Shown here: positions 3,926 to 22,122 of the stretch, piece by piece
Position numbering within the stretch: the first letter of the stretch is position 1
Layout of the letters: every line of letters starts with the position of its first letter
Source: a virus
Strand: one strand, 5' to 3'
IMG/VR virus record: IMGVR_UViG_3300018036_001638
Span: 1-22,454 of that record
DNA length: 22,454 nt
The notes under the pieces: generated by a model
What the model was told of the DNA's origin: nothing
Databases searched by the model: none
Seen by the model: the letters and a program-made list of their open reading frames with translations, nothing else
Program-made: the position numbers and the translations under genes

Positions 3926-3935
3926 GGAATTATTA

Positions 3936-4715: not shown

Positions 4716-4723
4716 GAACAAAC

Positions 4724-6427: not shown

Positions 6428-7450
6428 TTGACAAGATCTACAGCATTTTTTATTAACGGTGGCGCAGGACGTGTGATATGTTCTTTGCCTGCTTTCGAAT
6501 TATACGAAAAAGAAAATCCAGATGATGACTTTATTATTGTATGCGAAGGTGGTATGGACTTTTACAAAGGTCATCCTACACTACATAATAGAGCATATGA
6601 CCATTGGCACAAAGGACTGTTTGAAGAACATATAAAAGACAGAGATTGTGTAACCCCTGAACCATACAGAGTTTGGGAATACTATAATCAAAAATGTGAT
6701 CTTACACAAGCATTTGATATAGCAATCAATAATAAAGGATTACGTAAAGTAGGCGATCCAAAAATATTTACAAACAAGCAAGAAATTGTACAGGCTGCAA
6801 CTATTGTTGAAGAAATAAAACAAGGAACAGGAAAAGACAAAGTCTTAGTTGTTCAGCCATTTGGTAGAACTACAGAAACACACGGCGACTTTATTGTTGA
6901 CCCTACAAGTAGAAGTTTTCAACTTAATAATATTGTAGACATTATTAATATTCTAAAAAAAGAATATGCTGTTATTATAATGAGTGAGATACCTGTACCG
7001 TTAGAAGAAAAAGAAAATAAAGAATATCCAGTTGCACAGCCACAAATACCTGACTTGCGTATATGGGCAGGTGTTATTGATGTAGCAGATCATTTCCTAG
7101 GTTGCGATAGTTTAGGTCAGCATATGGTAAAAGCATTAGGTGGCACAGCAACTATTATAACAGGATCAACGTATCCAATAAACATATCATATCCTGATGA
7201 TCCTAAGTTTGATATTATAGATGTAGGTGACGGGAAACGTGTATATGCGCCAATACGTTTAACTATGGAAGAAGAACAAGATAGGCATAACGATGAAGTT
7301 ATGGAACTAACAACAAAACAAATAGATGAAATTTGTAATAGTGTAAGAAAACATTTAGGCAAAGGTGCAACAACAAAAGTACCTGAAACTAAAAAACAAA
7401 TGCAAAAATTAGTGCCTGGTAATACTAATTTAATTGGAGATAAAAAATAA
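6428..7450 (+). CDS. GT9 (heptosyltransferase)-like glycosyltransferase
   Basis: 340 residues. The start is TTG at 6428, chosen because AAGGAG (6416-6421) lies 6 nt upstream and the N-terminal glycine motif FINGGAGRVICSLPAF would be lost from any later start (the next Met is residue 43). That motif resembles the G.GD.l...P loop of GT-B heptosyltransferases. Residues 223-239 (FLGCDSLGQHMVKALGG) match the GT9 donor-site signature, roughly (F/I)GxDSGxxHxAxAxG. Members of that family transfer heptose from ADP-heptose to LPS core in the cytoplasm. Three ADP-heptose biosynthesis genes downstream make a heptose donor plausible. The C-terminal 35 residues are Lys-rich and probably outside the fold. 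It is the first gene of the island and overlaps the carbamoyltransferase by 1 nt (TAATG). The fold call is good; donor and acceptor are inferred. Confidence 0.7.
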   Translation: MTRSTAFFINGGAGRVICSLPAFELYEKENPDDDFIIVCEGGMDFYKGHPTLHNRAYDHWHKGLFEEHIKDRDCVTPEPYRVWEYYNQKCDLTQAFDIAINNKGLRKVGDPKIFTNKQEIVQAATIVEEIKQGTGKDKVLVVQPFGRTTETHGDFIVDPTSRSFQLNNIVDIINILKKEYAVIIMSEIPVPLEEKENKEYPVAQPQIPDLRIWAGVIDVADHFLGCDSLGQHMVKALGGTATIITGSTYPINISYPDDPKFDIIDVGDGKRVYAPIRLTMEEEQDRHNDEVMELTTKQIDEICNSVRKHLGKGATTKVPETKKQMQKLVPGNTNLIGDKK

Positions 7451-9255: not shown

Positions 9256-9886
9256 TGGAAAAGAAGCAAAAGACTTATCTGGAATAGATTTAGCAGAGGA
9301 TCAAATGATTGTTATTGATGATTTGTTCCCACAATATATTATTGAACATACACATGATTTAGTGTTCAATGGTTACAATTGGTTTTATGGACACACAAGT
9401 AACTATCCAGAAGACCCAAAAACAGACGTAGGCGCTATACCTGATTGGCCAGAAGTTCCTGCATTCAAACAACAAATTTATCCTCCACAAAGTCCTACAG
9501 CAAGTGATTCTGTATGGAGCATGATCTATAATGCTGTAGCACAAATGATTCCTTTTGAATTAGAAGTAGGAGAAATACTAGTAAACGGACAACAGTGGAT
9601 ACATAACACTACACCACATTCAGACTGTACTTGTGATAACGGTATCAGTTGGATATACTATGTAAACAGAGAATGGAAAGAAGAATGGGGCGGAGAAACT
9701 GTAATTCAATTAGACGGCGAATGGAAAAAAGTTTATCCTAAGCCAGGACGTATTTTCTTATTCAAAGGTAAAATTCCACATCATGGATTACCACCAAACG
9801 ATTCATACAAAGGATTACGTGCAACACTTGTATACAAAACAATGAGAGCTCAACCATTACCAGCGGCCCAACCCTGGAGAACATAA
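9245..9886 (+). CDS. 2OG-Fe(II) oxygenase (prolyl-4-hydroxylase-like)
   Basis: 213 residues from ATG 9245, overlapping the carbamoyltransferase end. The double-stranded beta-helix signature is clear: PHSDCTCDNGISWIYYVN gives H125 and D127 of the HxD iron pair, then WGGETVI (148-154), PKPGRIFLFKGKIPHHG (165-181) with the distal histidine at 179 or 180, and R192 in GLRATLVYK for the 2-oxoglutarate carboxylate. All facial-triad and co-substrate residues are present, so activity is plausible. Substrate unknown: such enzymes hydroxylate proteins or small molecules, and T4-like cyanophages commonly carry several. The stop overlaps the next ATG as TAATG. Confidence 0.85.
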   Translation: MLVNGKEAKDLSGIDLAEDQMIVIDDLFPQYIIEHTHDLVFNGYNWFYGHTSNYPEDPKTDVGAIPDWPEVPAFKQQIYPPQSPTASDSVWSMIYNAVAQMIPFELEVGEILVNGQQWIHNTTPHSDCTCDNGISWIYYVNREWKEEWGGETVIQLDGEWKKVYPKPGRIFLFKGKIPHHGLPPNDSYKGLRATLVYKTMRAQPLPAAQPWRT

Positions 9887-10401
9887 TGCGACACGAAATC
9901 TTTAGTGTTCCTGTATTCATAGACACTGTTGATTTAGAAAAAATTAACATAAGTGATGAAGAAACTGAGCCTACGTGGCTAAGTGAAACACCAAGCACAT
10001 TTACAAAAGAACACAAAATTGCACCAGAAACATTTGAATACTTAGTTAGTATCATTTCATCTAACTTGCAAAATCTTGTTGGTCCTAATCCAAGATTTGG
10101 TCCTATTTGGCGTAACAAGTACAAAGAAAATGATTGGCAGGATATACATATTCATCCTAACAGTGCTTGGAGTTTTATAATATACGAAACTGTAGAAGAA
10201 TCAAAAACTGTGTTTATGAATCCTATGTTCAAGGATATTCAAAATCATTTGGGCACAAATGTTGAAGGATTTCCTTTAGATTTTAGACCAGAATTAAAGA
10301 CAGGAGATATGATAATATTTCCAAGTTTCTTAGAGCATTTTGTTAGGCCAGGCTCTATAGGCTCAACTATAAGCGGCAACATATATATGGACTACGAATG
10401 A
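9886..10401 (+). CDS. Putative 2OG-Fe(II) oxygenase-like protein with atypical site
   Basis: 171 residues starting within TAATG at 9886. The layout resembles the short 2OG-oxygenase-like family also represented at 12835: IFSVPVF at the N end, WRNKYKENDWQDIHIHP (75-91), and GDMIIFPSFLEHFVRPG (140-156) as the distal strand with H151. The first metal motif is HIHPN (H88, H90) with no HxD aspartate. The usual arginine near the C end is absent: the segment reads GSTISGNIY. It may bind metal in a different way or be inactive. It overlaps HldE by 4 nt (ATGA), so it is translated with it. Fold assignment moderate; enzymatic activity uncertain. Confidence 0.6.
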   Translation: MRHEIFSVPVFIDTVDLEKINISDEETEPTWLSETPSTFTKEHKIAPETFEYLVSIISSNLQNLVGPNPRFGPIWRNKYKENDWQDIHIHPNSAWSFIIYETVEESKTVFMNPMFKDIQNHLGTNVEGFPLDFRPELKTGDMIIFPSFLEHFVRPGSIGSTISGNIYMDYE

Positions 10402-11549
10402 AAGTTTTAGTAATTGGTGATATAATTTTAGACAAATATATTTACGGAACTAGCACACGTATTAGTCCAGAAGCGCCTGTGCCTGTAGTAACACATCTAC
10501 AAGAAAAAACTACAATGGGTGGAGCAGCACTAGTTTATGATAATTTAAAAAGTCTCGGTGTAGATGTAGAGATGTATGACACACTAGAAGATCATAGTGT
10601 CAAAACTAGGATTATTTGTGACGGACATTACATTACACGTATTGATGAAGATAAAGATGCAGACTCAAATGCTGTGCTACAAAGAATAAAACAAGCGGAC
10701 TTTTCAGCTTATGATATTGTTATTCTAAGTGATTATGATAAAGGCACATTGGACAACGCAAAAAAAATTATAAAACATATTAACAAATTTAATTGTAAAG
10801 TTATAGTTGATCCAAAACGCTTTGCACACGATTATCAAGGTGCTTGGTTAGTAAAACCTAACAATAGTGAATATTATAAATTTGAATTTGACGACTGGAA
10901 GGGTAACATTATTACAACTGATGCAGGACATAGTGTAAGTGCCAAAATAGATGATAAAGAATATACTGTGCCTGTAGAAACAGTTGAAGTGTCTGATGTT
11001 ACTGGAGCAGGCGATTGTTTTATGGCTGGATTTGTATACGGATTAACAAAAGGATATCCATATAAGAAATGCTTGGAAGTTGCTGTAAAAGGCTCTACCG
11101 AAAGCGTAAAGCATGCAGGTACTTATATACTTAAAAGAGAAGATGTAGAACATACTGTAGTGTTTACTAATGGAGTGTTTGATATACTACATATTGGCCA
11201 TTTAAAGCTTCTAAGACACGCTAAAACGCTTGGAAATAGGCTTATAGTGGGTATTAACAGCGATGCAAGTGTAAAACGCTTAAAAGGCAATTTAAGACCC
11301 ATTAACGGAGAAGACACCCGCAAGGAAAGCCTCTTAGAGCTTGGTTTTGTTGACGATGTAATTGTGTTTGAAGAAGATACACCATTAGAAGCAATTACCA
11401 AATTAGAGCCAGATATTATAGTAAAAGGTGGAGACTACACAGTAGATACTGTAGTAGGTAATGAACTAGCAGAAGTAGTAATTTTCCCTACAGTAGAAGG
11501 ACATAGCACTACAAGGATTATAGATGAAGATACTAATAACAGGTCATAA
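10398..11549 (+). CDS. hldE: HldE: bifunctional heptose-7-phosphate kinase / heptose-1-phosphate adenylyltransferase
   Basis: The N-terminal domain (1 to ~250) is a ribokinase-type sugar kinase: TRISPEAPVPVV (20-31), GGAA (41-44), LSDYDKGTL (110-118), VDPK and catalytic TGAGD (202-206, base D206). The C-terminal domain (254-376) is a cytidylyltransferase-like nucleotidyltransferase: TNGVFDILHIGH (257-268) with the HxGH signature, INSDASVKRLKG (286-297), FEEDTP and VKGGDY. Compared with my recollection of E. coli HldE, the match is close across both domains. The known role is to phosphorylate D-glycero-D-manno-heptose 7-phosphate at C1 and later adenylylate the 1-phosphate to ADP-heptose. At 383 residues it is about 95 shorter than the 477-residue E. 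coli enzyme, losing part of the kinase and the interdomain linker. It overlaps HldD by 26 nt. Confidence 0.93.
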   Translation: MKVLVIGDIILDKYIYGTSTRISPEAPVPVVTHLQEKTTMGGAALVYDNLKSLGVDVEMYDTLEDHSVKTRIICDGHYITRIDEDKDADSNAVLQRIKQADFSAYDIVILSDYDKGTLDNAKKIIKHINKFNCKVIVDPKRFAHDYQGAWLVKPNNSEYYKFEFDDWKGNIITTDAGHSVSAKIDDKEYTVPVETVEVSDVTGAGDCFMAGFVYGLTKGYPYKKCLEVAVKGSTESVKHAGTYILKREDVEHTVVFTNGVFDILHIGHLKLLRHAKTLGNRLIVGINSDASVKRLKGNLRPINGEDTRKESLLELGFVDDVIVFEEDTPLEAITKLEPDIIVKGGDYTVDTVVGNELAEVVIFPTVEGHSTTRIIDEDTNNRS

Positions 11550-12330
11550 AGGTTTTATAGGACAAAATATGATGTCCTATTTAGAAACAAAGCACGAAGT
11601 TGCAGGTTATGATTTTGACCCTCAACAGTTACCATTAGTTAAAGATTACGATTGGGTTATTCATCTAGGAGCAATTAGTAGTACTACTGAAACAGATGTT
11701 GATAAAGTTATATTACATAATTATGAATTTACTAAATGGCTCTATAATCAATGTAATGCTTACAAAGTAAACATGCAGTATGCATCAAGTGCAAGTGTTT
11801 ACGGCGATACAAGACACTTTACAGAGTCTGGACCTAGTGATCCTAAAAGTCCTTATGCTTGGAGCAAGTATTTGTTTGACAGATGGGTAGGCGGAATGAA
11901 TCCGCAAATTATTGTACAAGGTTTTAGGTATTTTAATGTGTACGGTCCTAAAGAAGAACACAAAGGTAATCAATCAAGTCCTATACACAAGTTTACAGAA
12001 CAAGCAAAAACAGGTAAAATAATGTTATTTGAAAACAGCGAAAACTACAAAAGAGATTTTGTATGTGTAAGTGACATATGTGAAGTACATGAAAAAATGC
12101 TTGACATAAACGAGAAAGGAGTATACAATATAGGTACAGGAAATGCTATTAGTTTTAAACAAGTGGCTGATTTGATTGCAAAAAAATATAGTGCTGATAT
12201 TGAATATATACCCATGCCAGATAATTTAAAAGGACAGTATCAAGAATATACCTGTGCTAACTTAGATAGTTTAAGTAAATTAGTAAAACATAAATTTAAA
12301 AGTGTTGAGGAGTATGTAAATGAATGTTAA
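11524..12330 (+). CDS. hldD: HldD: ADP-L-glycero-D-manno-heptose 6-epimerase
   Basis: 268 residues of the extended SDR fold. The N end has GHKGFIG (7-13), the NAD(P)-binding GxxGxxG. Next come LGAISSTTE (48-56), YASSASVYG (86-94), the catalytic YAWSK (Y111, K115), GFRYFNVYGPKEEHKG (133-148), FENSENYKRDFV (169-180) and EYIPMPDNLKGQYQEYT (227-243). The SSTTE, EEHKG and SENYKRDF segments are specific to the ADP-heptose epimerase and separate it from other nucleotide-sugar epimerases. The lysine in EEHKG (147) corresponds to the second catalytic base reported for E. coli HldD, by my alignment. The enzyme inverts C6 of ADP-D,D-heptose. It is about 40 residues shorter than E. coli HldD. The start at ATG 11524 lies inside hldE and the end overlaps the next gene by 11 nt. 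Confidence 0.92.
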   Translation: MKILITGHKGFIGQNMMSYLETKHEVAGYDFDPQQLPLVKDYDWVIHLGAISSTTETDVDKVILHNYEFTKWLYNQCNAYKVNMQYASSASVYGDTRHFTESGPSDPKSPYAWSKYLFDRWVGGMNPQIIVQGFRYFNVYGPKEEHKGNQSSPIHKFTEQAKTGKIMLFENSENYKRDFVCVSDICEVHEKMLDINEKGVYNIGTGNAISFKQVADLIAKKYSADIEYIPMPDNLKGQYQEYTCANLDSLSKLVKHKFKSVEEYVNEC

Positions 12331-12838
12331 TTTAGTTGTTACAGATGATTTTTTACAAAATCCAGATCATGTAAGAGAACAAGTATTACAACTTCCTTTT
12401 GAAAGAGACGGTGGATTTCCAGGCATGCGTACTGATGGAGCCGATGAAGAATACCAAAGATATATTCAGCAGAAAATAGAAGCTATTTTAGGTGTAAACA
12501 TCACAGCATGGAAAATGGATAGTTTTTGTTTTCAATTATGTACGGAAGATGTTGCTACTTGGGTACACAGAGACGAAGGTGTAGATTGGGCAGGAGTATT
12601 ATACCTTACTCCAGACGCACCTAAAGAAGCGGGCACAGGAATTTTTACTGAACCTAAGCCGGGTGAATTTGAATTACAAGATGCTATAGCAAACAAATAC
12701 AACAGACTAATTTTGTATAGAGCAGATTCTTTACACAGTAGTTTGTTATCTGGATTTGGCGATAGCAAAGAAACAGGAAGATTAACACAGGTATTTTTCT
12801 TTGATACAAAAGGAGATCCAGGAGGTGGCTGGGTATGA
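12320..12838 (+). CDS. 2OG-Fe(II) oxygenase-like protein (DUF6445-like)
   Basis: 172 residues. ATG 12320 follows GAGGAG (12307-12312) inside the end of hldD. The N end, VVTDDFLQNPDHVREQVL then GGFPGMRT, and the end of the fold, RLTQVFFFDT, match the pattern of a family of 2OG-oxygenase-like proteins seen in marine bacteria and phages that I know as DUF6445. Likely metal ligands are H83 and D85 in WVHRDEG and H139 in SLHSS, with R154 in GRLTQ in the 2-oxoglutarate position. LYLTPDAP and GGTG-like GTGIF follow the usual pattern. The triad looks complete. Substrate unknown. It overlaps the next gene as ATGA. Confidence 0.72.
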   Translation: MNVNLVVTDDFLQNPDHVREQVLQLPFERDGGFPGMRTDGADEEYQRYIQQKIEAILGVNITAWKMDSFCFQLCTEDVATWVHRDEGVDWAGVLYLTPDAPKEAGTGIFTEPKPGEFELQDAIANKYNRLILYRADSLHSSLLSGFGDSKETGRLTQVFFFDTKGDPGGGWV

Positions 12839-13473
12839 TAGTAAATGGTAAAACACAAGGCCTATGGCCAACTTGGGTATATGAAGCAAAGGTAGAAAAA
12901 CAGGAAGAAATTTTAAAGGAGTTTGCTCCCTATTTAAATGATGACAGTTTTTTTGAAGATACTTGGATATACGGAAGTTGTCGTAGTAGTATTAGAAGCA
13001 AAAAGAATGATGCTTTGCCTTGGCAAGTTTTTTTTGAAAATATTCGTCCATACACACAACAGTATTTTGACGACATGCAACCAATGATGCCTTACAGTAT
13101 TACTTGTGAGGAGTTTTGGGTAAACACTTATAAAGAACATGACTACCAAGAGATACATGACCATGCATTTCCAGGACGTACAATTAGTGCCGTGTATATT
13201 TTAGAATTACCAGAAGGTGAAGATATAGGCGGACAATTAGTATTAGATTGTCCAAATTATAATATTATACAATCTTCAGGAATGGAGCAAATCTTTAATC
13301 AATGGCAGTATCAAAGATTTATTCCTGAATTAGAACCAGGTAAATTAATTCTGTTTCCTAGTTGGATTCCGCATTATGTTTTACCTAACAAGACAAACAA
13401 AAGGCGTGCTACTATAGCGGCTAATTTTAAAATAGAGGCGGCAACACATGACGAAACTGAACGGCTTAGTTGA
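12835..13473 (+). CDS. Putative 2OG-Fe(II) oxygenase
   Basis: 212 residues. ATG 12835 has a strong GGAGGT site at 12821-12826 within the previous gene. Core segments: FWVNTYKEHDYQEIHDHAFPG (within 94-114) with H108, D109 and H110 as candidate ligands, TISAVYILELP (116-126), and EPGKLILFPSWIPHYVLP (167-184) with H180. KRRATIAANF (189-198) supplies R190/R191. This is the general design of the short putative 2OG oxygenases found in marine phages (for example those captured by TIGR02466), and is better preserved here than in the gene at 9886. Overlap with the cupin gene is 26 nt. Substrate unknown. Confidence 0.7.
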   Translation: MIVNGKTQGLWPTWVYEAKVEKQEEILKEFAPYLNDDSFFEDTWIYGSCRSSIRSKKNDALPWQVFFENIRPYTQQYFDDMQPMMPYSITCEEFWVNTYKEHDYQEIHDHAFPGRTISAVYILELPEGEDIGGQLVLDCPNYNIIQSSGMEQIFNQWQYQRFIPELEPGKLILFPSWIPHYVLPNKTNKRRATIAANFKIEAATHDETERLS

Positions 13474-13810
13474 AAAAGGTTGGGGTAGTGAAACAATATT
13501 TGCTACTAATGATCTATATTGCGGTAAACTACTAAACTTCAATGAAGGTGCTAAATTTAGCATGCATATGCATAAAGAAAAAGATGAAACTTGGCATGTA
13601 CTAAGTGGTAGCTTTATATTGAAAACAATAGATACAACTACAGCAGATGTAAATGTAGAAACATTAAACAAAGGAGATACAAAGCATATACCTCCTATGT
13701 TACCGCATCAACTTATGTGTGTAAAAGCAGGATCGATTATTGAAGTAAGCACACCTGATAGTGTTGAAGATAATTATAGAGTCGAAAAAGGTGATAGTCA
13801 AAATGTCTAG
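13448..13810 (+). CDS. Cupin, mannose-6-phosphate-isomerase type
   Basis: 120 residues with a complete cupin site: FSMHMHKEKDETW gives H40, H42 and E47, and MLPHQL gives H87. VEKGWGSE at 8-15 and STPDSVEDNYRVEKGDSQ at the end match the single-domain cupins related to the C-terminal half of bifunctional mannose-1-phosphate guanylyltransferase/mannose-6-phosphate isomerase. Such proteins isomerise or bind phosphosugars. In this island it could act on a sugar-phosphate precursor, and the missing GmhA isomerase step is one possible link, but GmhA is a SIS-fold enzyme and not a cupin. Its true substrate is unknown. The start lies inside the previous gene. Confidence 0.82.
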   Translation: MTKLNGLVEKGWGSETIFATNDLYCGKLLNFNEGAKFSMHMHKEKDETWHVLSGSFILKTIDTTTADVNVETLNKGDTKHIPPMLPHQLMCVKAGSIIEVSTPDSVEDNYRVEKGDSQNV

Positions 13811-14618
13811 AACATTGTTTGTTGGTTGTAGTCATACTATGGGTTATCGGGGAGTTATTCCTGGTAAAAATAATGAAGAATGTTCGCAACCAAATACATG
13901 GGGACCTAACAACTATGCAGAATTTTACAGTAAAAATAATAACAAAAAATGTGTTGTAATGGCAAGTGCAGGCACAGGTAATAGAGTATATCCTAGATTT
14001 TTAGCACACGCATTTCAAACATATGATGATATAGACGAAGTGTTTATTCAAAGCACGTATTGGGGTAGATTTCCTATTGTTATTAATCCTGATTTAGATC
14101 CTACAGAAATATTTCCTGTAGATTTTTTCTTACAAAAAGATTCAAGTGACGAACTTGCTGATAGGTGGAGTATAGCACTAAGCGTAGATAACAAATATCT
14201 TGAACATTATCTTAAACCTCAACCACAGGATTGGGAAATAATGCCGTACAATAGAGATACATTGCCTTGGGTATCAGAACCTGATACAAGACGTAGTTCT
14301 CATATGTATTTCCAGATGTGGCATTACCAAAATACGCATTTGGAACAAGAAGATTATTTTAAAGACATTGCCGTGTGTGATATGATATGTAATAACAATA
14401 ATGTACCTATGTACGTCTGGAATATTAATAATAGATGTTTTATACCACAAGAAACAGCCAACTACTTTACAAAATTAAACAAAACAAAGTTTGCAAGTCA
14501 AAATGCCGAAACATTTTTTAATAAAAAGTTTGAAACATTAGACGGTGAACATTATACTGAAGAAGTGCATAAACAGATTGCAGAACAGTATATACCAATG
14601 TTAAAGGAAGCACAATGA
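13803..14618 (+). CDS. SGNH/GDSL-hydrolase-like protein
   Basis: I place the start at ATG 13803 (271 residues), which overlaps the cupin stop by 8 nt. The frame is open to a GTG at 13761, but that would add a Lys/Ile-rich tail in front of the natural N end MSRTLFVGCSHTMG. The first block has the nucleophile motif GCSHT (S10), the second MASAGTGNR (G57, N60), and the last DGEHYTEEVH (D247, H250, the DxxH pair). This order is that of SGNH hydrolases, which remove or transfer acyl groups on sugars and lipids. No signal peptide, so action is cytoplasmic. A role in O-acetyl editing of the island's glycan is inference. It overlaps the next gene as ATGA. Confidence 0.72.
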   Translation: MSRTLFVGCSHTMGYRGVIPGKNNEECSQPNTWGPNNYAEFYSKNNNKKCVVMASAGTGNRVYPRFLAHAFQTYDDIDEVFIQSTYWGRFPIVINPDLDPTEIFPVDFFLQKDSSDELADRWSIALSVDNKYLEHYLKPQPQDWEIMPYNRDTLPWVSEPDTRRSSHMYFQMWHYQNTHLEQEDYFKDIAVCDMICNNNNVPMYVWNINNRCFIPQETANYFTKLNKTKFASQNAETFFNKKFETLDGEHYTEEVHKQIAEQYIPMLKEAQ

Positions 14619-15193
14619 AAGATGACCACAACGGAATAGAAGTATACCCAAACATATACGAAAAAGAATATTGCGATGAAATTATAAAACATTTTAATAT
14701 TATGGCACGTAACAAAGTTACATATAACCAAAATAATTTAGAAGTGAATCAAGATAATAGAATTGTATTTGACTGGGCACATACACAAAACCAATATCAT
14801 TATGATTATAATTTATGTGATTATTTCTATAAAAAATTACACGATACATATACTGAGCAATATATGGAAAAATATCAAATGCTAAAGCAAAGTGAACAAC
14901 ACAGTCCTAAAGGTATGAGTATACAAAAGACTTTGCCTCATCAAGGATATCACGCCTGGCATGCAGAAGCTGCTGATATTGGATCTTGTTCAAGAGTTAT
15001 GAACTACATGTTATACCTTAACGATGTTGAAGAAGGCGGCGAAACAGAATTTTTATACCAAGGTGTTAAACTTAAACCTACAGCTGGTTCCCTTGTGATT
15101 TTCCCAACAAGTTATATGTATCCACACAGAGGAAACCCTATATACACAGGTGAGAAATATATAATTACAGGTTGGTATACCTATGATAGATAA
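14615..15193 (+). CDS. 2OG-Fe(II) oxygenase, prolyl-4-hydroxylase type
   Basis: 192 residues, ATG 14615 after AAAGGAAG. Segments in order: YHAWHAEAAD (112-121) with H116 and E118, so the usual HxD is HxE; RVMNYMLYLNDVEEGGETEF (127-146), the standard second-strand signature; LKPTAGSLVIFPTSYMYPHRG (153-173) with distal H171; and K181 in GEKYIITGW, where prolyl-4-hydroxylases have their 2-oxoglutarate-binding lysine. This is the best match in the window to the phage P4H-like proteins. Activity is plausible although Asp is replaced by Glu. Substrate unknown. The last 11 nt overlap the phosphatase gene. Confidence 0.85.
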   Translation: MKDDHNGIEVYPNIYEKEYCDEIIKHFNIMARNKVTYNQNNLEVNQDNRIVFDWAHTQNQYHYDYNLCDYFYKKLHDTYTEQYMEKYQMLKQSEQHSPKGMSIQKTLPHQGYHAWHAEAADIGSCSRVMNYMLYLNDVEEGGETEFLYQGVKLKPTAGSLVIFPTSYMYPHRGNPIYTGEKYIITGWYTYDR

Positions 15194-15779
15194 ACATAAA
15201 GTTGTTACAGCAGCCCCAACACTTCCTACACAATGCGTAATTGGTTTAGATAGAGACGGAGTAATTAATAGAGATTTGGGTACATATGTAAAGTCTGCAG
15301 ATCAATTTGAGCCTATTGAAGGAAGTTTAGAAGCAATAGCAAAATTACGTAGACTAGGACATAGAATTGTAATACTTACAAACCAAGGTGGTATTGCAAA
15401 AGGCGTACTTACAAATGAACAGGTAGAATCTGTACACGCACACATGCTTAACTTATTTGGCGAAGCAGGCTGTCCTAGTATTGAAGGAATATATTACAGT
15501 GAAAGTAGTCAAAAAAATGATATGTATGCGAAACCTAACGCTGGTATGTTTAAACGCTGTGCAAAAGAAATCAAAGGCGTAAAATGGTCACAAGGATTTT
15601 TTGTTGGTGATAAAATGAGTGATTTAAAAGCAGCAATGAAGGTAGGAGCAAGGCCTGTGCTTGTTAGAACCGGATACGGACTAGAAACTGAAAAACAGCT
15701 AAATAAGTATACATATAGAGAAATTAAAAAGAAGACATATGTATTTGACAGTTTAGCTGAATTTGCAGATCAGCTATAA
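15183..15779 (+). CDS. gmhB: HAD phosphatase, GmhB-like (heptose-1,7-bisphosphate 7-phosphatase)
   Basis: 198 residues. HAD motifs in order: GLDRDGVIN (21-29, nucleophile D23 and acid/base D25), LTNQGGIAKG (65-74), KPNAGM (117-122) and VGDKMSDLKAA (141-151, D143 and D147), then VLVRTGYG (159-166). The order and wording fit the GmhB/histidinol-phosphatase (HAD-IIIA) group. The known role of GmhB is to remove the 7-phosphate from heptose 1,7-bisphosphate between the two HldE reactions. The zinc loop (CxH...CxC) of canonical E. coli-type GmhB is missing: the corresponding region IYYSESSQKNDMYAKPN has no cysteine. Because HldE and HldD are in the same island, a GmhB role is likely, with another sugar phosphatase as the alternative. 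It is the last island gene; the late-promoter motif overlaps its stop. Confidence 0.78.
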   Translation: MIDKHKVVTAAPTLPTQCVIGLDRDGVINRDLGTYVKSADQFEPIEGSLEAIAKLRRLGHRIVILTNQGGIAKGVLTNEQVESVHAHMLNLFGEAGCPSIEGIYYSESSQKNDMYAKPNAGMFKRCAKEIKGVKWSQGFFVGDKMSDLKAAMKVGARPVLVRTGYGLETEKQLNKYTYREIKKKTYVFDSLAEFADQL

Positions 15780-16150: not shown

Positions 16151-17413
16151 ATGGCATTACCAGTAGCACCCGTATTCGATAGAGTAAGATTAGTTCCGCG
16201 ACCTAACGATTTTTTAAATAGAAACGTAGGGTCCAGCGGAGAAATATTCTACGAAAAAGAAACCAAAACTCTAAGAGTCTATAACGGATTAGAAAGAGGC
16301 GGCTTTGAAATAGTAAGCCAAGATAGGTTGCGGGTCAATGCCGCAAATGCAGAAGTAGCAACAGTAAAATATAATGTTACTGTAGGAACAGCAGGTGCCG
16401 GAAACAAATATATCTTTAATGGTGATGGAGTTCTACAACCAGAACTACAATTTGTTGTAGGATATACATATCTATTTGATCAATCAGATCAAACAAATTT
16501 ATATTTTCCAAATCCAGAAGGCGGTGCTATTAATCAACACCCACTTAATTTTAGTTCTGATAATTTAAACGGAACATTAGGCGGGGGTACAAGTTACGAT
16601 GACGGAGTTGTTTACTTACTTGAAGGACTAGAAGTTACACAAGCACAATACTGGAACAACTTTTCGCGTTCTGTAAAACGTGAAGTACAGATTACAATAA
16701 CATCTTCTACGCCTACTACATTATATTATTGGTGTCAAAAGCATCTTAACATGGGTGCATCAATTACTATAGGAGCGCCAGGCGCAGGTAGTGGAGCAAG
16801 TTTAGAAGTCAGCGATACAGCACCAGAAAATCCTAGTGCAGGAAGTATTTGGTATGATAGCACAACAGGATATTTGTATGTCTATATTGAAGATGCAGAC
16901 AGCAATCAATGGGTACAACCAGTAGCTGGAAATATTTTCAGTGGCGATTACAACGATTTAAGTAATAAGCCAACTATATTTGACGGTAACTATTCAAGTT
17001 TAGTTGGAGCACCTACCATACCTTCAAGTTTAACTGATTTAGGAATATCAGACGGTACAGCAGATCAGATTTTGACTACAGACGGAGCTGGTAACTTTAC
17101 CTTCCAAGATGCAACTGGCGGTGGTAGTTCTTATGATCAAAGTTTAAACACAACTGATTCAGTAACTTTTGCAAGTATTAGTTCACCAACATTTTTAAAT
17201 AGTGGAACTGGTGTTACTAATCTAACAAGTGCAAGTACCCTAACATTACAAGCTGTAGATGTTGTAAGAGTAACAGGCTCTCCTTTTAGATTACCAAGTT
17301 TTACTACAGTAGAAAAAAGTGCCTTGAGTGCTGTTAATGGTGATATGGTATATGATAGTGATTTAAATAAAGCACAAGTTTATGAAGGCGGTGCTTGGGC
17401 GAGCTTAGTATAA
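16151..17413 (+). CDS. Tail protein with cupredoxin-like domain, 420 aa
   Basis: ATG 16151 follows AAGGAA. The N end (1-65) has FLNRNVGSSGEIFYEKETKTLRVYNG, a beta segment of the kind that starts many marine phage fibres. Residues ~70-207 form a cupredoxin-like domain: VGYTYLFDQSDQTN (103-116), QHPLNF (H130) and TTLYYWCQKHLNMGASI (C195, H198, M201). H...C-x2-H-x2-M is the type-1 copper ligand set, with the amicyanin-like C-x2-H-x2-M spacing. Residues ~225-320 contain fibre-type segments such as GSIWYDSTTG, GDYNDLSNKPTI and SLTDLGISDGTA. The end (VEKSALSAVNGDMVYDSDLNKAQVYEGGAW) is of a form common at fibre ends. It overlaps the protease gene by 1 nt (TAATG). Metal binding is suggested by residues, not shown. 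Confidence 0.8.
   Translation: MALPVAPVFDRVRLVPRPNDFLNRNVGSSGEIFYEKETKTLRVYNGLERGGFEIVSQDRLRVNAANAEVATVKYNVTVGTAGAGNKYIFNGDGVLQPELQFVVGYTYLFDQSDQTNLYFPNPEGGAINQHPLNFSSDNLNGTLGGGTSYDDGVVYLLEGLEVTQAQYWNNFSRSVKREVQITITSSTPTTLYYWCQKHLNMGASITIGAPGAGSGASLEVSDTAPENPSAGSIWYDSTTGYLYVYIEDADSNQWVQPVAGNIFSGDYNDLSNKPTIFDGNYSSLVGAPTIPSSLTDLGISDGTADQILTTDGAGNFTFQDATGGGSSYDQSLNTTDSVTFASISSPTFLNSGTGVTNLTSASTLTLQAVDVVRVTGSPFRLPSFTTVEKSALSAVNGDMVYDSDLNKAQVYEGGAWASLV
16358..16771 (+). other. Cupredoxin-like domain with complete copper ligand set
   Basis: This is the domain-coding segment of the 420-residue tail protein. The ligands by position are H130, C195, H198 and M201. The domain is of ordinary cupredoxin length (~138 residues), and the motifs occur in the order of type-1 copper proteins. 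A second, independent case is encoded at 21164-21502. Confidence 0.65.
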
Positions 17414-19911
17414 TGAGTGAAAAAGAATACGTTGTAATTGTAAAAGCCGATGTTGATCTTGAAGCCTTTGATGCAGAAGTAGCAGCTGACACAGGTTCAG
17501 GTCAAATACCAAACCGTGCAGTAACAGTAGCAAATCCAAGAATTGGATCAAAGCGTATGACTCATTGGATGCTTACAGATGAAGAAGCAGAAACTCTTGC
17601 ACAAGACGACAGAGTTGTTGCTGTAGAGGTCCCACCAGATCAAAGAACTGATATGGACATTGGATTGCATGCTAGACAAACAGCAGTATTTGAAAGACAA
17701 TCTGGTAATAATTCAACTTGGGTAAACTGGGGTTTACGTAGATGTGATGAAGCAACAAATACGTTTGCTGATGCAACTACATTATCTGGTGACCATCTTT
17801 ATGCTTTAGACGGAACAGGTGTAGACTTTATTGTACAAGATAGTGGTATACAAGCAGACCATCCTGAGTTTTACATGCCCAATACAACTGAATATGCTAG
17901 TGGTGCATTAGTAAATGATGCAACCAATGGAGACGTTTTTGATAGAAGCTTAAATGTAAGAGGTATAAAACTTGTAGCGGCAGGAGCAGTTGGCGGACAA
18001 ACAACTGTACCAGACGAATGGGTTAAAAAAACAGCACAAGCTATAAAGTTATTAATTGATCCTAACGGAGATAGCATTAATATTACACAACAGAAAAATT
18101 TAATTTCAACACTTAAAGGTGACACTGGCACAACACATGCTGGCTTGCCAACAGCACAAAGAATCGGATATGGCGGCGGCGCCAGTTACGATCCTAATTG
18201 GTTAACAGATGTTGGAGCTGCACAGTACTCAGGATATACAGACTTTTTAAATACTCATGTTGTTAATGATATGGTGTGGTATAAAAATACAAGCGGTCCT
18301 GATCCAAGTACAAGCGATGGAGATATTGAAGAGATTATGGAACACTTGTTTCATACAATACATAATTTTGGCATTCCGGGAGCTGTAGAAGGAAGTGCAA
18401 CACAAGTTCCTATGGAAACTTTAATTTCAATATTAGATAATAATCCTAGTTTTTCTTGGACAACTACAGAATTACATCTTGCTATGAAAGAAGCAATTGA
18501 CGCAGGGTTATATGATCCAAGTGGTTATGCTACTGATTGGGCAACAGATTCTGATGCAGCTGTAGTAGCATATAAAGAATATACTTACTTAGTAAATTGG
18601 TCAATGTGGGATATGAGTGAGTTTTGGGACGGAGAAAGTCTTAGTCCTGAGTGGGATGATACTTTAAAAACACCTTCAGGTATGTTAGCAAATAATCCAC
18701 TAGGTTATGCCATGTTTAACAAATACTTTGCACCAGTACTTAGTAAACCAGATTTTAATATACTAAAACGTATATTTCAAGATAATGATGCTGGAGTATC
18801 TGGCTATGTAGCACAACCGTCTGCATCACGAGTGCAAGAAATTGATTGGTTTGCTGACAGTGGTATTGTAGGTGAAACACAAGACGAAAATTTTTATACA
18901 GACTATGACGGCCACGGCACTCATTGTGCAGGTATTGCCGTAGGCAAAACGTTTGGCTGGGCAAAGAATGCAAGAATATATGCTCAAAAATTAGGTGGTT
19001 TAGAAGGCACAGATGACCCTAATAGTGGGATTAGTATTACTAATGCATTTGACACAATTAGACTTTGGCATAATAATAAATCAAACAATAGGCCTACTGT
19101 TGTTAACATGAGTTGGGGATATGGATTCTCAACGTCATCTGATCCAACAAGTGGAACATATAGAGGCACAGGTTGGACGTATGGAGTTGATTATGCCGAT
19201 AGAGATACTTTAGAAGCAGGTACCGGCGTAGGTATTAAAAGGTTGAACAGCGGAACAGTAACTAGATTGTCAACTAGAAATGCTACTGTAGATGCTGAAA
19301 TAGAAGATATGATTTCAGCAGGAATACACGTAGTAATTGCAGCCGGTAATAACTATAATAAAGTAGAAGCGTTTGGCGGCACTGATTATAACAATGATGC
19401 ATTATTTGGAGCAACTACAATAAACTATCATAGAGGAAGTTCACCATATAGCACAAATGCATACATGGTAGCTAGTTTAGATAGCACAACACAAGATGAC
19501 AGTGGTACTGAAAAAGATAGAACAAGTATTTTTTCAAGCAGAGGTCCAGGATGTAATATATGGGCACCAGGAAGTAATATTATGAGTGCTTGTAGCACAC
19601 CATATAACGCAAGTAAATTTGCACCAATAACATATTTTGACGATGCGAATTTTTATCAAATGAGTATAAGTGGAACATCTATGGCAGCCCCGCAAGTTGC
19701 AGGACTTTTATGTTTACACTTAGAATCAAGCCCGGAACTAACACCGGCACAATTACAATCAAAAATTATAGCAGATGCAAAAGATGTTGTATATAATACA
19801 GGTGCAGATAACGACTATGATCAGGTAAGTACAAGTACGTTCGGGCAAGATGCAAAAATTTTATATAGTAGATATGCAAATGCAAATGCATTATCTATAA
19901 CAACGGAATAA
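17413..19911 (+). CDS. Subtilisin-family (S8) protease with large insertion, 832 aa
   Basis: I place the start at ATG 17413 (TAATG overlap with the tail gene), 6 codons after an unlikely TTG at 17395. Residues 1-80 resemble a protease propeptide/I9-type inhibitor (EYVVIVKADVDLEAF, TDEEAETLAQDDRVVAVEVP). The catalytic domain has D143 in VQDSGIQADHPEF (141-153), H501 in DGHGTHCAGIAVG (499-511), N646 in IAAGNNYN, and S756 in SGTSMAAPQVAGLL (753-766): a complete triad. The normal Asp-to-His distance is about 30 residues; here it is 358. Residues ~165-470 are an insertion of helical character with HLFHTIH (311-317). There is no signal peptide, so it is not obviously secreted; it lies between two virion genes. 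It may process virion proteins or travel in the virion, but this is inference. It is confidently an S8 protease; target unknown. Confidence 0.9.
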   Translation: MSEKEYVVIVKADVDLEAFDAEVAADTGSGQIPNRAVTVANPRIGSKRMTHWMLTDEEAETLAQDDRVVAVEVPPDQRTDMDIGLHARQTAVFERQSGNNSTWVNWGLRRCDEATNTFADATTLSGDHLYALDGTGVDFIVQDSGIQADHPEFYMPNTTEYASGALVNDATNGDVFDRSLNVRGIKLVAAGAVGGQTTVPDEWVKKTAQAIKLLIDPNGDSINITQQKNLISTLKGDTGTTHAGLPTAQRIGYGGGASYDPNWLTDVGAAQYSGYTDFLNTHVVNDMVWYKNTSGPDPSTSDGDIEEIMEHLFHTIHNFGIPGAVEGSATQVPMETLISILDNNPSFSWTTTELHLAMKEAIDAGLYDPSGYATDWATDSDAAVVAYKEYTYLVNWSMWDMSEFWDGESLSPEWDDTLKTPSGMLANNPLGYAMFNKYFAPVLSKPDFNILKRIFQDNDAGVSGYVAQPSASRVQEIDWFADSGIVGETQDENFYTDYDGHGTHCAGIAVGKTFGWAKNARIYAQKLGGLEGTDDPNSGISITNAFDTIRLWHNNKSNNRPTVVNMSWGYGFSTSSDPTSGTYRGTGWTYGVDYADRDTLEAGTGVGIKRLNSGTVTRLSTRNATVDAEIEDMISAGIHVVIAAGNNYNKVEAFGGTDYNNDALFGATTINYHRGSSPYSTNAYMVASLDSTTQDDSGTEKDRTSIFSSRGPGCNIWAPGSNIMSACSTPYNASKFAPITYFDDANFYQMSISGTSMAAPQVAGLLCLHLESSPELTPAQLQSKIIADAKDVVYNTGADNDYDQVSTSTFGQDAKILYSRYANANALSITTE
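17905..18822 (+). other. ~306-residue insertion between catalytic Asp and His of the protease
   Basis: The insertion (residues ~165-470 of the protease) begins after the YMPNTTEYASGAL segment and ends at SRVQEIDWFADSG, where the normal subtilisin sequence resumes. It is rich in predicted helices, for example WVKKTAQAIKLLI, EEIMEHLFHTIH and TTELHLAMKEAIDAG, and has a Trp-rich stretch (VNWSMWDMSEFW). H311, H314 and H317 form an HxxHxxH cluster. I know no matching domain. Confidence 0.6.
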
Positions 19912-19921
19912 AGGTAGTAAC

Positions 19922-21520
19922 ATGGCAATAAATTATCCAAATGATCCAAACTTAAATGATACTCATGTAGTAGGTGATGTTACATGGACTTGGAATGGCA
20001 CAGCTTGGGAAATTGGAACAAGTGGCGGCGGCGCAGGCTCTTCAGCTTATACTGACGCAAGTGTTAACGCACACCTAAATACAAATACAGCTAGTACAGA
20101 TCAATTATTAAGTTGGGACGGATCGGATTATGCATGGACAGATCCTGGAGCAGGTGGTAGTGGTGACGCTAACCAAAATGCATTTTCAACAATAGTCACA
20201 GACACTGGTGCAAATGTCGTTGCTGATACAACAACAGACTCATTCACGCTTGCAGGCGGAACTAATATAGAGTCAGTTGGAAACGCCGATGATGACAGTG
20301 TAACAATGAACTTACAAAGTTTTAGTATAGATTTCTTAAGTGATGTAGATACAACAACCTCTGCACCCACAACTGGTAATGTTCTTAAATGGGACGGAGC
20401 AAAATGGGCACCAGGTTCAGATGCTACAACAGGCGGTGGCGGCACTGATGCAGATACGCTAGACGGATTTGATAGTGCATATTTTTTAGATTATACTAAC
20501 TTTACAAATACTCCTAGTGTTCTTACACTAACAGGGTTAAGTGTAGGACCAGCAAATACAGCTTCAGGTAGTGGTGCTATTACATATGATAATACAACAG
20601 GTGTATTTAAATATACTCCACCAGATCTAAGTACATATCTTACAAGTGTTGCTTTTGCAGATTTGACAGGCAAACCTACAACAATAGCAGGATATGGCAT
20701 TATTGATGCACTTGAATTAGGAACTACATCAACTACAGCGTTAGCAGGAGATACTACAATACCTGCAGATGTAAGTGATTTGACAGATACTACAAATTTA
20801 TTAAGTGGTGCAAGTTATACTGATGCTAGTGTCGATACTCATCTTAATACAGGTTCAGCAGGTAATAACGAAGTGCTTAGTTGGACTGGTACAGATTACG
20901 CTTGGGTAAGCAATGCTGGCGGTGGAGGCGGAGACGCTAACCAAAATGCATTTAGTACTATTGCTATTGGCGGCGAAGATAGTGTAGTTGCAGATAGTCC
21001 TACAGATACTTTTAATTTAATTGCTGGAACAGGAATAAGTCTTTCAACAAACGCATCTACAGATAGTATTACTATTACAGCGGCATCATCACTTGCATTT
21101 GGTGATTTAACAGATGCACCTTCAGGACTAACACCTGCTAATTTTTATGAATCAGCAATAACAACATTTAGAGTTACAAATACTGGTTCTTCATCTTATG
21201 AATTTGACAGTCACTACAGTGGGTCCAATCCAACAATTTATGTTATAAGTGGTACAACAGTTGCATTTGATCTAAGTCAAATCGGAGGACATCCTTTTGC
21301 AATACAAGATAGTACAGGGACAGATTACAACACTGGATTAGTACATGTTGCTACTGACGGAACTGTTTCTACAGGTTCGAACGCACAAGGTAAAAGTTCA
21401 GGAACACTATATTGGAGAATACAAGAAAGTTTAGGTAGTCCGCCTAATTATAGATATCAATGTACTTCACATATAGGCATGGTTGGTGCAATTACAATTA
21501 AGCGTCTAAGCACCCTGTAA
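19922..21520 (+). CDS. Tail-fibre-like protein with internal duplication and C-terminal cupredoxin-like domain, 532 aa
   Basis: ATG 19922 follows AAAGGTAG. The N end (MAINYPNDPNLNDTHVVGDV) and TWTWNGTAWEIG form a short virion-attachment segment. Residues 42-116 and 298-372 are an internal duplication. Between them are fibre-type segments such as ADTLDGFDSAYFLDYTNFTN and FADLTGKPTTIAGYGI. The C-terminal domain (~415-527) is cupredoxin-like: TIYVISGTTVAFDL, GGHPFAIQDS (H457) and YQCTSHIGMVGAI (C514, H517, M520). It is the last rightward gene; its end overlaps the end of a leftward gene by 15 nt. Role as a tail fibre inferred from sequence style and neighbourhood. Confidence 0.82.
   Translation: MAINYPNDPNLNDTHVVGDVTWTWNGTAWEIGTSGGGAGSSAYTDASVNAHLNTNTASTDQLLSWDGSDYAWTDPGAGGSGDANQNAFSTIVTDTGANVVADTTTDSFTLAGGTNIESVGNADDDSVTMNLQSFSIDFLSDVDTTTSAPTTGNVLKWDGAKWAPGSDATTGGGGTDADTLDGFDSAYFLDYTNFTNTPSVLTLTGLSVGPANTASGSGAITYDNTTGVFKYTPPDLSTYLTSVAFADLTGKPTTIAGYGIIDALELGTTSTTALAGDTTIPADVSDLTDTTNLLSGASYTDASVDTHLNTGSAGNNEVLSWTGTDYAWVSNAGGGGGDANQNAFSTIAIGGEDSVVADSPTDTFNLIAGTGISLSTNASTDSITITAASSLAFGDLTDAPSGLTPANFYESAITTFRVTNTGSSSYEFDSHYSGSNPTIYVISGTTVAFDLSQIGGHPFAIQDSTGTDYNTGLVHVATDGTVSTGSNAQGKSSGTLYWRIQESLGSPPNYRYQCTSHIGMVGAITIKRLSTL
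20045..20269 (+). repeat. Internal direct repeat, copy 1, of the 532-aa tail protein
   Basis: Residues 42-116, starting at AYTDASV and ending GGTNI. It contains HLNTNTASTD, LSWDGSDYAW and GDANQNAFSTI. Copy 2 is at 20813-21037. The segment GACGCTAACCAAAATGCATTT is identical in both copies at the DNA level. Confidence 0.85.
20813..21037 (+). repeat. Internal direct repeat, copy 2, of the 532-aa tail protein
   Basis: Residues 298-372, starting SYTDASV and ending AGTGI. It contains LSWTGTDYAW and GDANQNAFSTI, matching copy 1 at 20045-20269 position by position with the same 75-residue length. Confidence 0.85.
21164..21502 (+). other. Second cupredoxin-like domain, C-terminal in the 532-aa tail protein
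   Basis: The encoded residues ~415-527 end with YQCTSHIGMVGAITI. The candidate ligands are H457, C514, H517 and M520, with the same C-x2-H-x2-M spacing as in the domain at 16358-16771. The two domains are otherwise not close in sequence. Confidence 0.6.
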
Positions 21521-21763
21521 GAAATTTTTTAAACTATATCTTAATCTTTGTAGTTCAACTACGTTTTCTCTGAGTGTATGCGGATCTATGTTGCCGTCAT
21601 GTTCGCTTGCATGCCCGTTGTTTATAAGATTAACATGATTAATTAATTCGTTTAACATTTGTTGTGCTTGCTTTTTATTTTTTCCAACTTTTACACGATT
21701 AATAGCTTGTTGAAATTCGTTTATTTCGGTTTTGTATTTTACACTTTTATTCAAAGTTAACAT
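21506..21763 (-). CDS. Small helical protein of unknown function, 85 aa
   Basis: Leftward gene starting at ATG 21763, two bases after the stop of the cupin gene, in an apparent three-gene leftward operon. The 85 residues are highly charged and predicted helical: KYKTEINEFQQAINRVKVGKN and LRENVVELQRLRYSLKNFL with a Gly/His-rich turn (NNGHASEHDGNIDPH). No cysteine or membrane segment. The end overlaps the end of the 532-aa tail gene on the other strand by 15 nt. Its reading frame is kept open and its spacing to the cupin is operon-like, supporting reality. I recognise no family. Confidence 0.7.
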   Translation of the reverse strand: MLTLNKSVKYKTEINEFQQAINRVKVGKNKKQAQQMLNELINHVNLINNGHASEHDGNIDPHTLRENVVELQRLRYSLKNFLQGA

Positions 21764-21765
21764 AA

Positions 21766-22122
21766 CTATTCTTTCTTAGTTGGACGTAATTGAAAAAAAT
21801 CTAATGACGGATCACTATTACTAGTCTGTGTAATACTTCCGCCGTCCATTGTACTTTCAATACCTACTGGCATACAAGGCGGAACGTGGAAAACACTACC
21901 TTCTTTAATTTCTTTTTCATATAACATACCATCGCTAGTATCAATCCATGCAATTTTAAAATTTCCACTATTTACAAACCAAGACTTTTCTGTAGATTTA
22001 TGAAAATGCATAGGTAGTCCACTACCTACACTTTCAAAAACTAATATTTTTGAGATATAATTATCTGTTTTTGCCCAGGTTGCTTCGTAACCAAAATTAC
22101 TTTTATCTACGTTTTCGTTCAT
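21766..22122 (-). CDS. Cupin-fold protein with degenerate metal site, 118 aa
   Basis: Leftward, from ATG 22122, overlapping the Nudix stop as ATGA. FGYEATWAKTDNYISKILVF (10-29) and GLPMHFHKSTEKSWFV (35-50) are typical of small sugar-phosphate-type cupins. In contrast with the cupin at 13448, only H39 and H41 of the first motif remain: the glutamate position is K46, and the second motif GSVFHVPPCMPVGIES has Val where the last histidine should be. Iron or manganese binding as in ordinary cupins is therefore unlikely. It may bind a small molecule or act as a regulator. Confidence 0.8.
   Translation of the reverse strand: MNENVDKSNFGYEATWAKTDNYISKILVFESVGSGLPMHFHKSTEKSWFVNSGNFKIAWIDTSDGMLYEKEIKEGSVFHVPPCMPVGIESTMDGGSITQTSNSDPSLDFFQLRPTKKE

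What the first reader, a model, noticed from the sequence alone, without database searches (positions are those of the whole stretch)
17413..19911. Virion-block subtilisin with a ~300-residue insertion between catalytic Asp and His
Seen: complete S8 triad D143/H501/S756 and N646, with 358 residues separating D and H. The insertion has its own helical character, a Trp-rich stretch and HxxHxxH. No signal peptide. A protease encoded between two tail genes could mature virion proteins or be delivered with the virion to cut host surface proteins. The insertion could provide targeting.
Basis: partly seen in the sequence, partly recalled or inferred. Interest (0 to 1): 0.7.

Follow-up and report, generated by a model that had tools for sequence, protein, structure and literature searches.

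The report
Phage protease carrying a mobile domain
A marine phage gene among the tail genes encodes a complete subtilisin-type protease into which a separate, swappable domain has been inserted; the same domain is found in other phage tail proteins and in surface lipoproteins of ocean bacteria, and its predicted fold resembles zinc-dependent proteases, with an altered metal-site motif.

Summary
Confirmed: window 17413-19911 encodes an 832-aa S8 protease with triad D143/H501/S756 plus N646. It is proteinase-K-like (Z 35.6) with an I9-like prodomain (residues ~1-95) and no signal peptide. Residues 154-471 replace a 6-residue loop in near-identical relatives that lack the insert.

The insert is an autonomous, mobile ~310-aa module. 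Close relatives of this one protease carry no module, a 50%-identical different module in 91-98%-identical flanks, or (more distantly) an unrelated ~135-aa insert; parsimony needs about 10 changes. The module also sits in a baseplate protein of cultured cyanophages (S-RIM2, S-RIM12, Syn33), in lipase, tail-fibre and second-subtilase proteins, and at the C-terminus of flavobacterial lipoproteins.

The AlphaFold2 model (pLDDT 94.7) matches zincin-type metallopeptidases by VIA-align (best Z 6.9, moderate). The motif helix reads EHxxHT, not HExxHT, in 63/63 sequences. No Pfam, PDB-sequence or NCBIfam family describes it.

Virion location is supported indirectly: flanking baseplate-type genes, and S-SCSM1, where the same protease is fused to a baseplate-type protein annotated "virion protein". 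Whether the module is an active metalloenzyme or only a binder is untested.

The parts
17413..19911 (+). S8 subtilase, proteinase-K type, 832 aa (phrog_9158 family), with inserted module
17413..17697 (+). I9-like N-terminal prodomain, residues ~1-95 (ferredoxin-like topology; boundary approximate)
   Evidence: model secondary structure; 3afg ProN-Tk-SP aligned from residue 1, mature-only chains aligned from residue 101
17713..17871 (+). catalytic domain, first part, residues 101-153 (contains Asp143)
17839..17841 (+). catalytic Asp143 codon
17872..18825 (+). insert, residues 154-471 (318 aa) in place of 6 aa (E/Q-DAAG-V/T) in L016, L077, L022
17890..18810 (+). mobile zincin-fold module proper, residues ~160-466
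   Evidence: alignments A1/A4; model pLDDT 94.7; VIA-align
18259..18282 (+). predicted strand before the motif helix (residues 283-290; D286, M287, Y290 invariant)
18331..18363 (+). motif E307-x-x-E310-H311-x-x-H314-T315-x-H317 on the predicted active-site helix
   Evidence: E-x-x-E-H-x-x-H-T in all 63 sequences
18574..18582 (+). K388-E389-Y390 on the following helix, candidate third metal ligand region
   Evidence: invariant in A4; helix 228-246 of the module
18826..19908 (+). catalytic domain, second part, residues 472-832
18913..18915 (+). catalytic His501 codon
19348..19350 (+). oxyanion Asn646 codon
19678..19680 (+). catalytic Ser756 codon
16151..17413 (+). upstream neighbour with a segment like the phrog_708 baseplate wedge family
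   Evidence: E = 1.7e-14, residues 68-204
19922..21520 (+). downstream neighbour like gp9 baseplate wedge tail-fibre connector (phrog_677)
   Evidence: (E = 9.4e-43)

Best explanation
The protein is a virion-borne, baseplate/tail-associated proteinase-K-type protease. It is made with an inhibitory or chaperone prodomain and no signal peptide, assembled into the tail during virion morphogenesis, and used outside the new host cell to cut surface proteins during adsorption (function inferred). Into its Asp-His loop phages insert a mobile ~310-aa domain of zincin fold, which is exchanged between phages and between different tail proteins and is shared with surface lipoproteins of marine bacteria. 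The module works on its own, not as a regulator of this protease: most likely it is a metal-binding hydrolase whose site is built from E310/H311/H314 on the active-site helix and E389 on the next helix, acting on the host surface and displayed wherever a solvent-exposed loop or protein end tolerates it. Shown: intact subtilase, modular insertion, mobility, purifying selection. Predicted: zincin fold. Inferred: virion location of this protein, metal binding, catalysis, substrate.
For: Intact S8 triad, fold and prodomain. Module exchange: N flank / module / C flank identity to the window is 98/50/91 for L007, 97/none/91 for L016, 93/93/81 for L003 and 30/75/31 for L092; dS is lower in the module than in the flanks for L003-L006 (0.27 vs 0.98 and 0.78); at least 10 insert gain/loss changes on the flank tree and 11 changes of carrier on the module tree. 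Carriers: gp10-region baseplate protein of S-RIM2, S-RIM12, Syn33 and S-B43, C-terminus of another subtilase (L029), Lipase_3 protein (L126), tail-fibre protein (L129), baseplate-like protein (L107-L111). Bacterial lipoproteins, one examined with Flg_new_2 repeats. Zincin fold: every top VIA-align row is a zincin: PPEP-2, PPEP-1/Zmp1, PPEP-3, anthrax lethal factor, lugdulysin, M1 aminopeptidases, collagenase. EHxxHT and KEY invariant in 63/63, and the motif persists in a remote homologue, L194. Virion link: S-SCSM1 gp144 is the subtilase fused to a baseplate-type protein noted 'virion protein'; S-SCSM1 virions were analysed by MS (PMC9602691).
Against: The HExxH signature of zincin peptidases is not present; the H and E are in the opposite order, which may abolish classical zinc peptidase chemistry. 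Foldseek alone found no significant match, and VIA Z 6.9 is within the range reported for models without true relatives. No coordinates were available to check the metal-site geometry. Virion presence of this very protein is not shown; the S-CREM1 virion MS text reports 14 proteins without naming the peptidase (PMC9964418). The protease has many relatives without the module, so the module is dispensable to it.
Confidence: 0.5

Rival explanations
1. The module is a non-catalytic adhesion or receptor-binding domain (a repurposed zincin fold) that anchors tail proteins to host-surface molecules; the subtilase supplies the only enzymatic activity.
For: It moves between virion proteins in the host-recognition/baseplate region, as host-range cassettes do. 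The HExxH motif is rearranged. In bacteria it sits at the end of lipoproteins, in one case after B-repeats, typical of displayed domains. The non-catalytic N-terminal domain of anthrax lethal factor, a degenerate zincin, ranks among the fold matches.
Against: E307, E310, H311, H314, T315, E389 and Y390 are invariant over phages and bacteria at 44-50% identity, and the ExxEHxxHT and EY motifs persist in a remote homologue. A binding domain under host-range selection would be expected to vary most on its functional surface.
Confidence: 0.33
2. The insert regulates or directs the subtilase itself (gates its cleft or positions substrate), as the first reader's 'targeting' suggests.
For: It lies in the loop between catalytic Asp and His. 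A second, unrelated ~135-aa insert occupies the same site in L064, L065, L073 and L079, so the loop tolerates regulatory-type additions.
Against: The same module occurs in carriers with no subtilase (S-RIM2 gp10-region protein, Lipase_3 protein, bacterial lipoproteins), and close relatives of this subtilase do without it.
Confidence: 0.12
3. The protease acts inside the infected cell to mature tail proteins, rather than on the host surface.
For: No signal peptide; encoded among tail genes.
Against: No evidence of processed tail proteins. T4-type phages have a separate prohead protease (gp21), annotated in relatives such as S-CREM2 (PMC10665884). Fusion of the subtilase to a baseplate-type virion protein in S-SCSM1 argues for a structural component.
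Confidence: 0.1
4. The insert is a self-splicing or homing element (intein-like) and not part of the mature protein.
For: Precise presence/absence in near-identical genes and horizontal spread.
Against: The insert ends in ...GYVAQPSA-SRVQ or GYVVDTG-SRVQ with no His-Asn + Cys/Ser/Thr junction; it starts with Tyr or Ala; it also occurs at protein C-termini; there is no Hint or nuclease family hit; and it replaces 6 residues rather than interrupting an intact site.
Confidence: 0.02

Closest known systems
Proteinase-K-like S8A subtilases (keratinase 5wsl, aqualysin I 4dzt)
   Same: Catalytic fold (Z 35.6, 34% identity over 268-274 residues), triad and oxyanion Asn, N-terminal prodomain
   Different: No signal peptide; phage tail-gene context; ~310-aa domain between Asp and His
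Cyanophage subtilases of phrog_9158 type (S-CREM1 UYA57622, S-H38 QPB07966, P-SSM2 PSSM2_297, S-SCSM1 gp144)
   Same: Full-length homology (S-SCSM1 gp144 shown in the same PHROG), baseplate/tail location
   Different: None of those examined carries the module; 26-36% identity
gp10-region baseplate wedge protein of S-RIM2 / S-RIM12 / Syn33 (phrog_708, YHYH domain)
   Same: Contains the same module, 47% identical, as an internal insertion
   Different: Carrier is a structural baseplate protein without a subtilase domain
PPEP / Zmp1 Pro-Pro endopeptidases and other zincins (M34, M30, M1)
   Same: Overall fold by VIA-align, Z 6.9 to 4 over 119-188 residues
   Different: HExxH replaced by EHxxH; 5-12% identity; no sequence-level relationship
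Subtilases with long Asp-His insertions (tripeptidyl-peptidase II, pyrolysin; recalled from memory, not tested)
   Same: Large insert in the same catalytic loop
   Different: Those inserts are, as far as I recall, family-specific rather than mobile domains shared with unrelated proteins

Membership tests
Peptidase S8A (subtilase, proteinase K type) | Asp/His/Ser triad and oxyanion Asn in the canonical motifs | tested here: met
   D143, H501, N646, S756 in QDSG, GHGTH, AAGN, GTSMA; Pfam E 5.5e-30
Peptidase S8A (subtilase, proteinase K type) | Subtilisin-like fold | tested here: met
   Z 35.6, rmsd 2.2-2.5 over 268-274 residues
Peptidase S8A (subtilase, proteinase K type) | I9-type prodomain | tested here: met
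   Topology in the model and alignment of 3afg pro-form from residue 1; no Pfam I9 hit, so by structure only
Peptidase S8A (subtilase, proteinase K type) | Proteolytic activity | not testable with these tools
   needs the protein
Phage virion (baseplate/tail) proteins | Present in the particle | tested here: inconclusive
   Gene neighbours and S-SCSM1 fusion noted 'virion protein'; no direct detection of this protein
Zincin / gluzincin metallopeptidases (for the insert) | Zincin fold | tested here: inconclusive
   All top VIA rows are zincins, best Z 6.9, but Z below 8 and no significant Foldseek hit
Zincin / gluzincin metallopeptidases (for the insert) | HExxH motif | tested here: not met
   EHxxHT in 63/63 sequences
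Zincin / gluzincin metallopeptidases (for the insert) | Downstream Glu ligand on the next helix | tested here: inconclusive
   Invariant E389 on a helix after the motif helix; geometry not checked
Zincin / gluzincin metallopeptidases (for the insert) | Bound zinc and peptidase activity | not testable with these tools
   needs the protein
Intein | N-terminal Cys/Ser and C-terminal His-Asn before Cys/Ser/Thr | tested here: not met
   Junction sequences

The most novel reading that the evidence does not exclude
The module is a new family of metalloenzyme: a zincin-fold hydrolase with a permuted EHxxH metal site, traded as a cassette between phage tail proteins (including into the catalytic loop of a protease, giving a two-enzyme tail protein) and surface lipoproteins of marine bacteria.
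Probability: 0.35. Interest if true: 0.78.

Novelty: new variant of a known kind. Interest (0 to 1): 0.6.

Why it matters
Phage tail proteins that digest surface polysaccharide are well known; virion-borne proteases that might strip surface proteins are little studied, and I found no paper on this one. The module is a clear case of a folded domain hopping into a catalytic loop without destroying the enzyme's conserved residues, with natural 'empty site', 'module A', 'module B' and 'other insert' versions of one gene family, so its contribution can be tested directly. If the EHxxHT site is a working metal site it defines a new enzyme family shared by marine phages and bacteria.

Tried and rejected
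Intein or homing element: no splice residues, no Hint or nuclease hit. Decaying insert: rejected by purifying selection and invariant motif. Pfam, NCBIfam and PDB sequence searches with the protein or module, and with the 63-sequence profile, gave nothing meaningful for the module. Foldseek against PDB and BFVD gave no significant match; only the VIA-align second look gave zincins. The module was not found in plasmids. The unrelated ~135-aa insert of L073/L064 has no Pfam hit. Search for psbA to assign a cyanobacterial host: none in 12 related contigs (fragments, so not proof). Major capsid protein of the L006 contig is nearest to large phages of Sinorhizobium, Vibrio and Pseudomonas at 67-69%, so the host of the window's virus is not established. 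Search for divergent module relatives with HExxH among 955 bacterial genomes gave only a few hits, with EHxxHT in those read and one partial remote homologue.
Full report
Observation. The ORF at 17413-19911 encodes 832 residues; the start ATG overlaps the upstream stop codon. Pfam gives Peptidase_S8 at E 5.5e-30. An AlphaFold2 model of the whole protein (mean pLDDT 85.9) aligns by VIA-align with proteinase-K-type enzymes, best with a Meiothermus keratinase and aqualysin I (Z 35.6, rmsd 2.2-2.5 over 268-274 residues), starting at residue 101; the pro-form of Tk-SP aligns from residue 1. With the secondary structure of residues 4-72 this shows an N-terminal I9-like prodomain. No signal peptide is apparent.

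Exact insert. Relatives with nearly the same protease but no insert define the junctions. L016 (97% identical over residues 1-152 and 91% over 474-832) reads HPEF-EDAAGV-SRVQQ where the window reads HPEF-[318 residues]-SRVQE. So residues 154-471 (DNA 17872-18825) stand in place of six. GC content of insert and flanks is about the same (0.373 against 0.383).

The insert is mobile. The window's protease and L007 are 98% and 91% identical in the two flanks, yet their inserts are only 50% identical; L007's insert groups with the one of cyanophages S-RIM2 and Syn33. Conversely L092 shares 75% of the insert but only 30-31% of the flanks. Synonymous divergence between L003 and L006 is 0.27 in the insert against 0.98 and 0.78 in the flanks. 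On a tree of 67 flank sequences the presence of an insert changes at least 10 times; the nine-row starred clade that holds the window contains no-insert, window-type and S-RIM2-type versions. Four further rows carry an unrelated 133-136-aa insert in the same loop. The loop is therefore an insertion hot spot. These counts come from a sample biased by the search patterns and a quick tree, and cannot tell gain from loss.

Other carriers. In S-RIM2 (SWTG_00062, 1713 aa), S-RIM12, Syn33 and S-B43 the module lies inside the long baseplate wedge protein of the gp9-gp8 region (phrog_708 in S-RIM2; Pfam YHYH stretches in the same protein). In viral contigs it is at the C-terminus of a second subtilase (L029, aa 506-814 of 825), inside a baseplate-like protein (L107-L111), near the N-terminus of a tail-fibre protein (L129), at the C-terminus of a Lipase_3 protein (L126, L133), in a 1533-aa protein (L115), and far downstream of the subtilase domain in a 1757-aa fusion (L067). 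In marine bacteria it forms the C-terminus of lipoproteins of Flavobacteriaceae and Actinomycetota, in one examined case (L152) after Flg_new_2 repeats; there are also versions in Opitutales and Gammaproteobacteria. It is rare there: 6 of 199 genomes in one flavobacterial family draw, and 1 of 387 and 1 of 369 in a phylum and a class draw, where the one is the query genome.

Fold and motif. The module model built on 63 sequences is very confident (mean pLDDT 94.7, pTM 0.93). Foldseek finds nothing significant in PDB or BFVD, but re-alignment of Foldseek's candidates by VIA-align puts zincins in every top place: PPEP-2 (Z 6.9, 146 residues, rmsd 3.9), Zmp1/PPEP-1, PPEP-3, both the non-catalytic and the catalytic domain of anthrax lethal factor, lugdulysin, M1 aminopeptidases and a collagenase. 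Z under 8 is not proof, but the uniformity across several zincin families is telling. In several rows the spacing from the start of the aligned range fits: the insert's E158 (window E310) is 145 residues in, against 141 for the HExxH His of lugdulysin (the entry title gives E242, taken here as the motif Glu). This uses range ends only and is a consistency check. All 63 sequences have E-x-x-E-H-x-x-H-T on the helix at module 149-167 (window E307, E310, H311, H314, T315) and K-E-Y (388-390) on the later helix 228-246. A remote flavobacterial homologue that matches only from this helix onward keeps ExxEHxxHT and EY. So the HE of the zincin signature HExxHT is consistently EH here. By the defining-motif test it is not a classical zincin peptidase, although it may still work as a metalloenzyme.

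Virion association. The upstream neighbour has a phrog_708 segment and the downstream one is gp9-like. In S-H38 and S-CREM1 the homologous subtilase lies between a 'baseplate wedge subunit and tail pin' gene and further baseplate wedge genes. In S-SCSM1 the subtilase (phrog_9158, the same family as the window protein) is the N-terminal part of a 1411-aa protein that the record notes as 'baseplate wedge subunit (virion protein)'; that phage's virions were analysed by mass spectrometry (PMC9602691). The protein at what looks like the corresponding baseplate position of S-CREM2 was detected with 91 peptides (PMC10665884), but whether it holds a module was not examined. The window also fits the hypervariable host-recognition cluster described in marine T4-like phages (PMC7029224). 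None of this detects the window's own protein in a particle.

Mechanism. Best supported: a tail-borne subtilase exposed on the virion, with an independently acting, exchangeable domain in a surface loop. Because the module occurs in carriers with no subtilase, its role should not depend on the subtilase. Because its polar motif residues are invariant while carriers change freely, I favour a metal-dependent hydrolase acting on the host surface (about 0.5 with the rest of the model) over a pure binding domain (about 0.33). The protease's own target is unknown; surface proteins of the host are the natural inference.

Comparison and novelty. The protease is a new, domain-inserted member of a known cyanophage/marine-phage subtilase family. 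The module has no Pfam, NCBIfam or PDB sequence family and I found no paper describing it; the literature held here is incomplete.

Noticed in passing
window 6428-15779: Cluster that by sequence looks like an ADP-heptose pathway (HldE-like 10398-11549, HldD-like epimerase 11524-12330, GmhB-like phosphatase 15183-15779) with a heptosyltransferase-like gene (6428-7450), a carbamoyltransferase (7450-9255) and several 2OG-Fe(II)-oxygenase-like genes; assigned by eye, not by search.
   Followed up: no
window 3143-5533: Three tandem paralogous Cys/Gly-rich tail-fibre-like proteins (260, 259, 269 aa) with a shared CCGQGGTGG near the C-terminus.
   Followed up: no
L064, L065, L073, L079 (about 6460-6870): A different 133-136-aa insert in the same Asp-His loop of the subtilase, with no Pfam match; on two separate branches.
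   Followed up: partly
L029:3741-7783: Two tandem divergent subtilases, the first with the module at its C-terminus.
   Followed up: partly
L126, L133: Module at the C-terminus of a 1497-aa Lipase_3 plus He_PIG protein in contigs up to 300 kb.
   Followed up: no
L194 (G089): Remote flavobacterial homologue that keeps ExxEHxxHT and EY but matches only the second half of the profile, hinting at a wider superfamily.
   Followed up: partly
window 21506-22122 (minus strand): Two minus-strand ORFs (85 aa, and a 118-aa cupin-like protein) end the plus-strand tail block.
   Followed up: no
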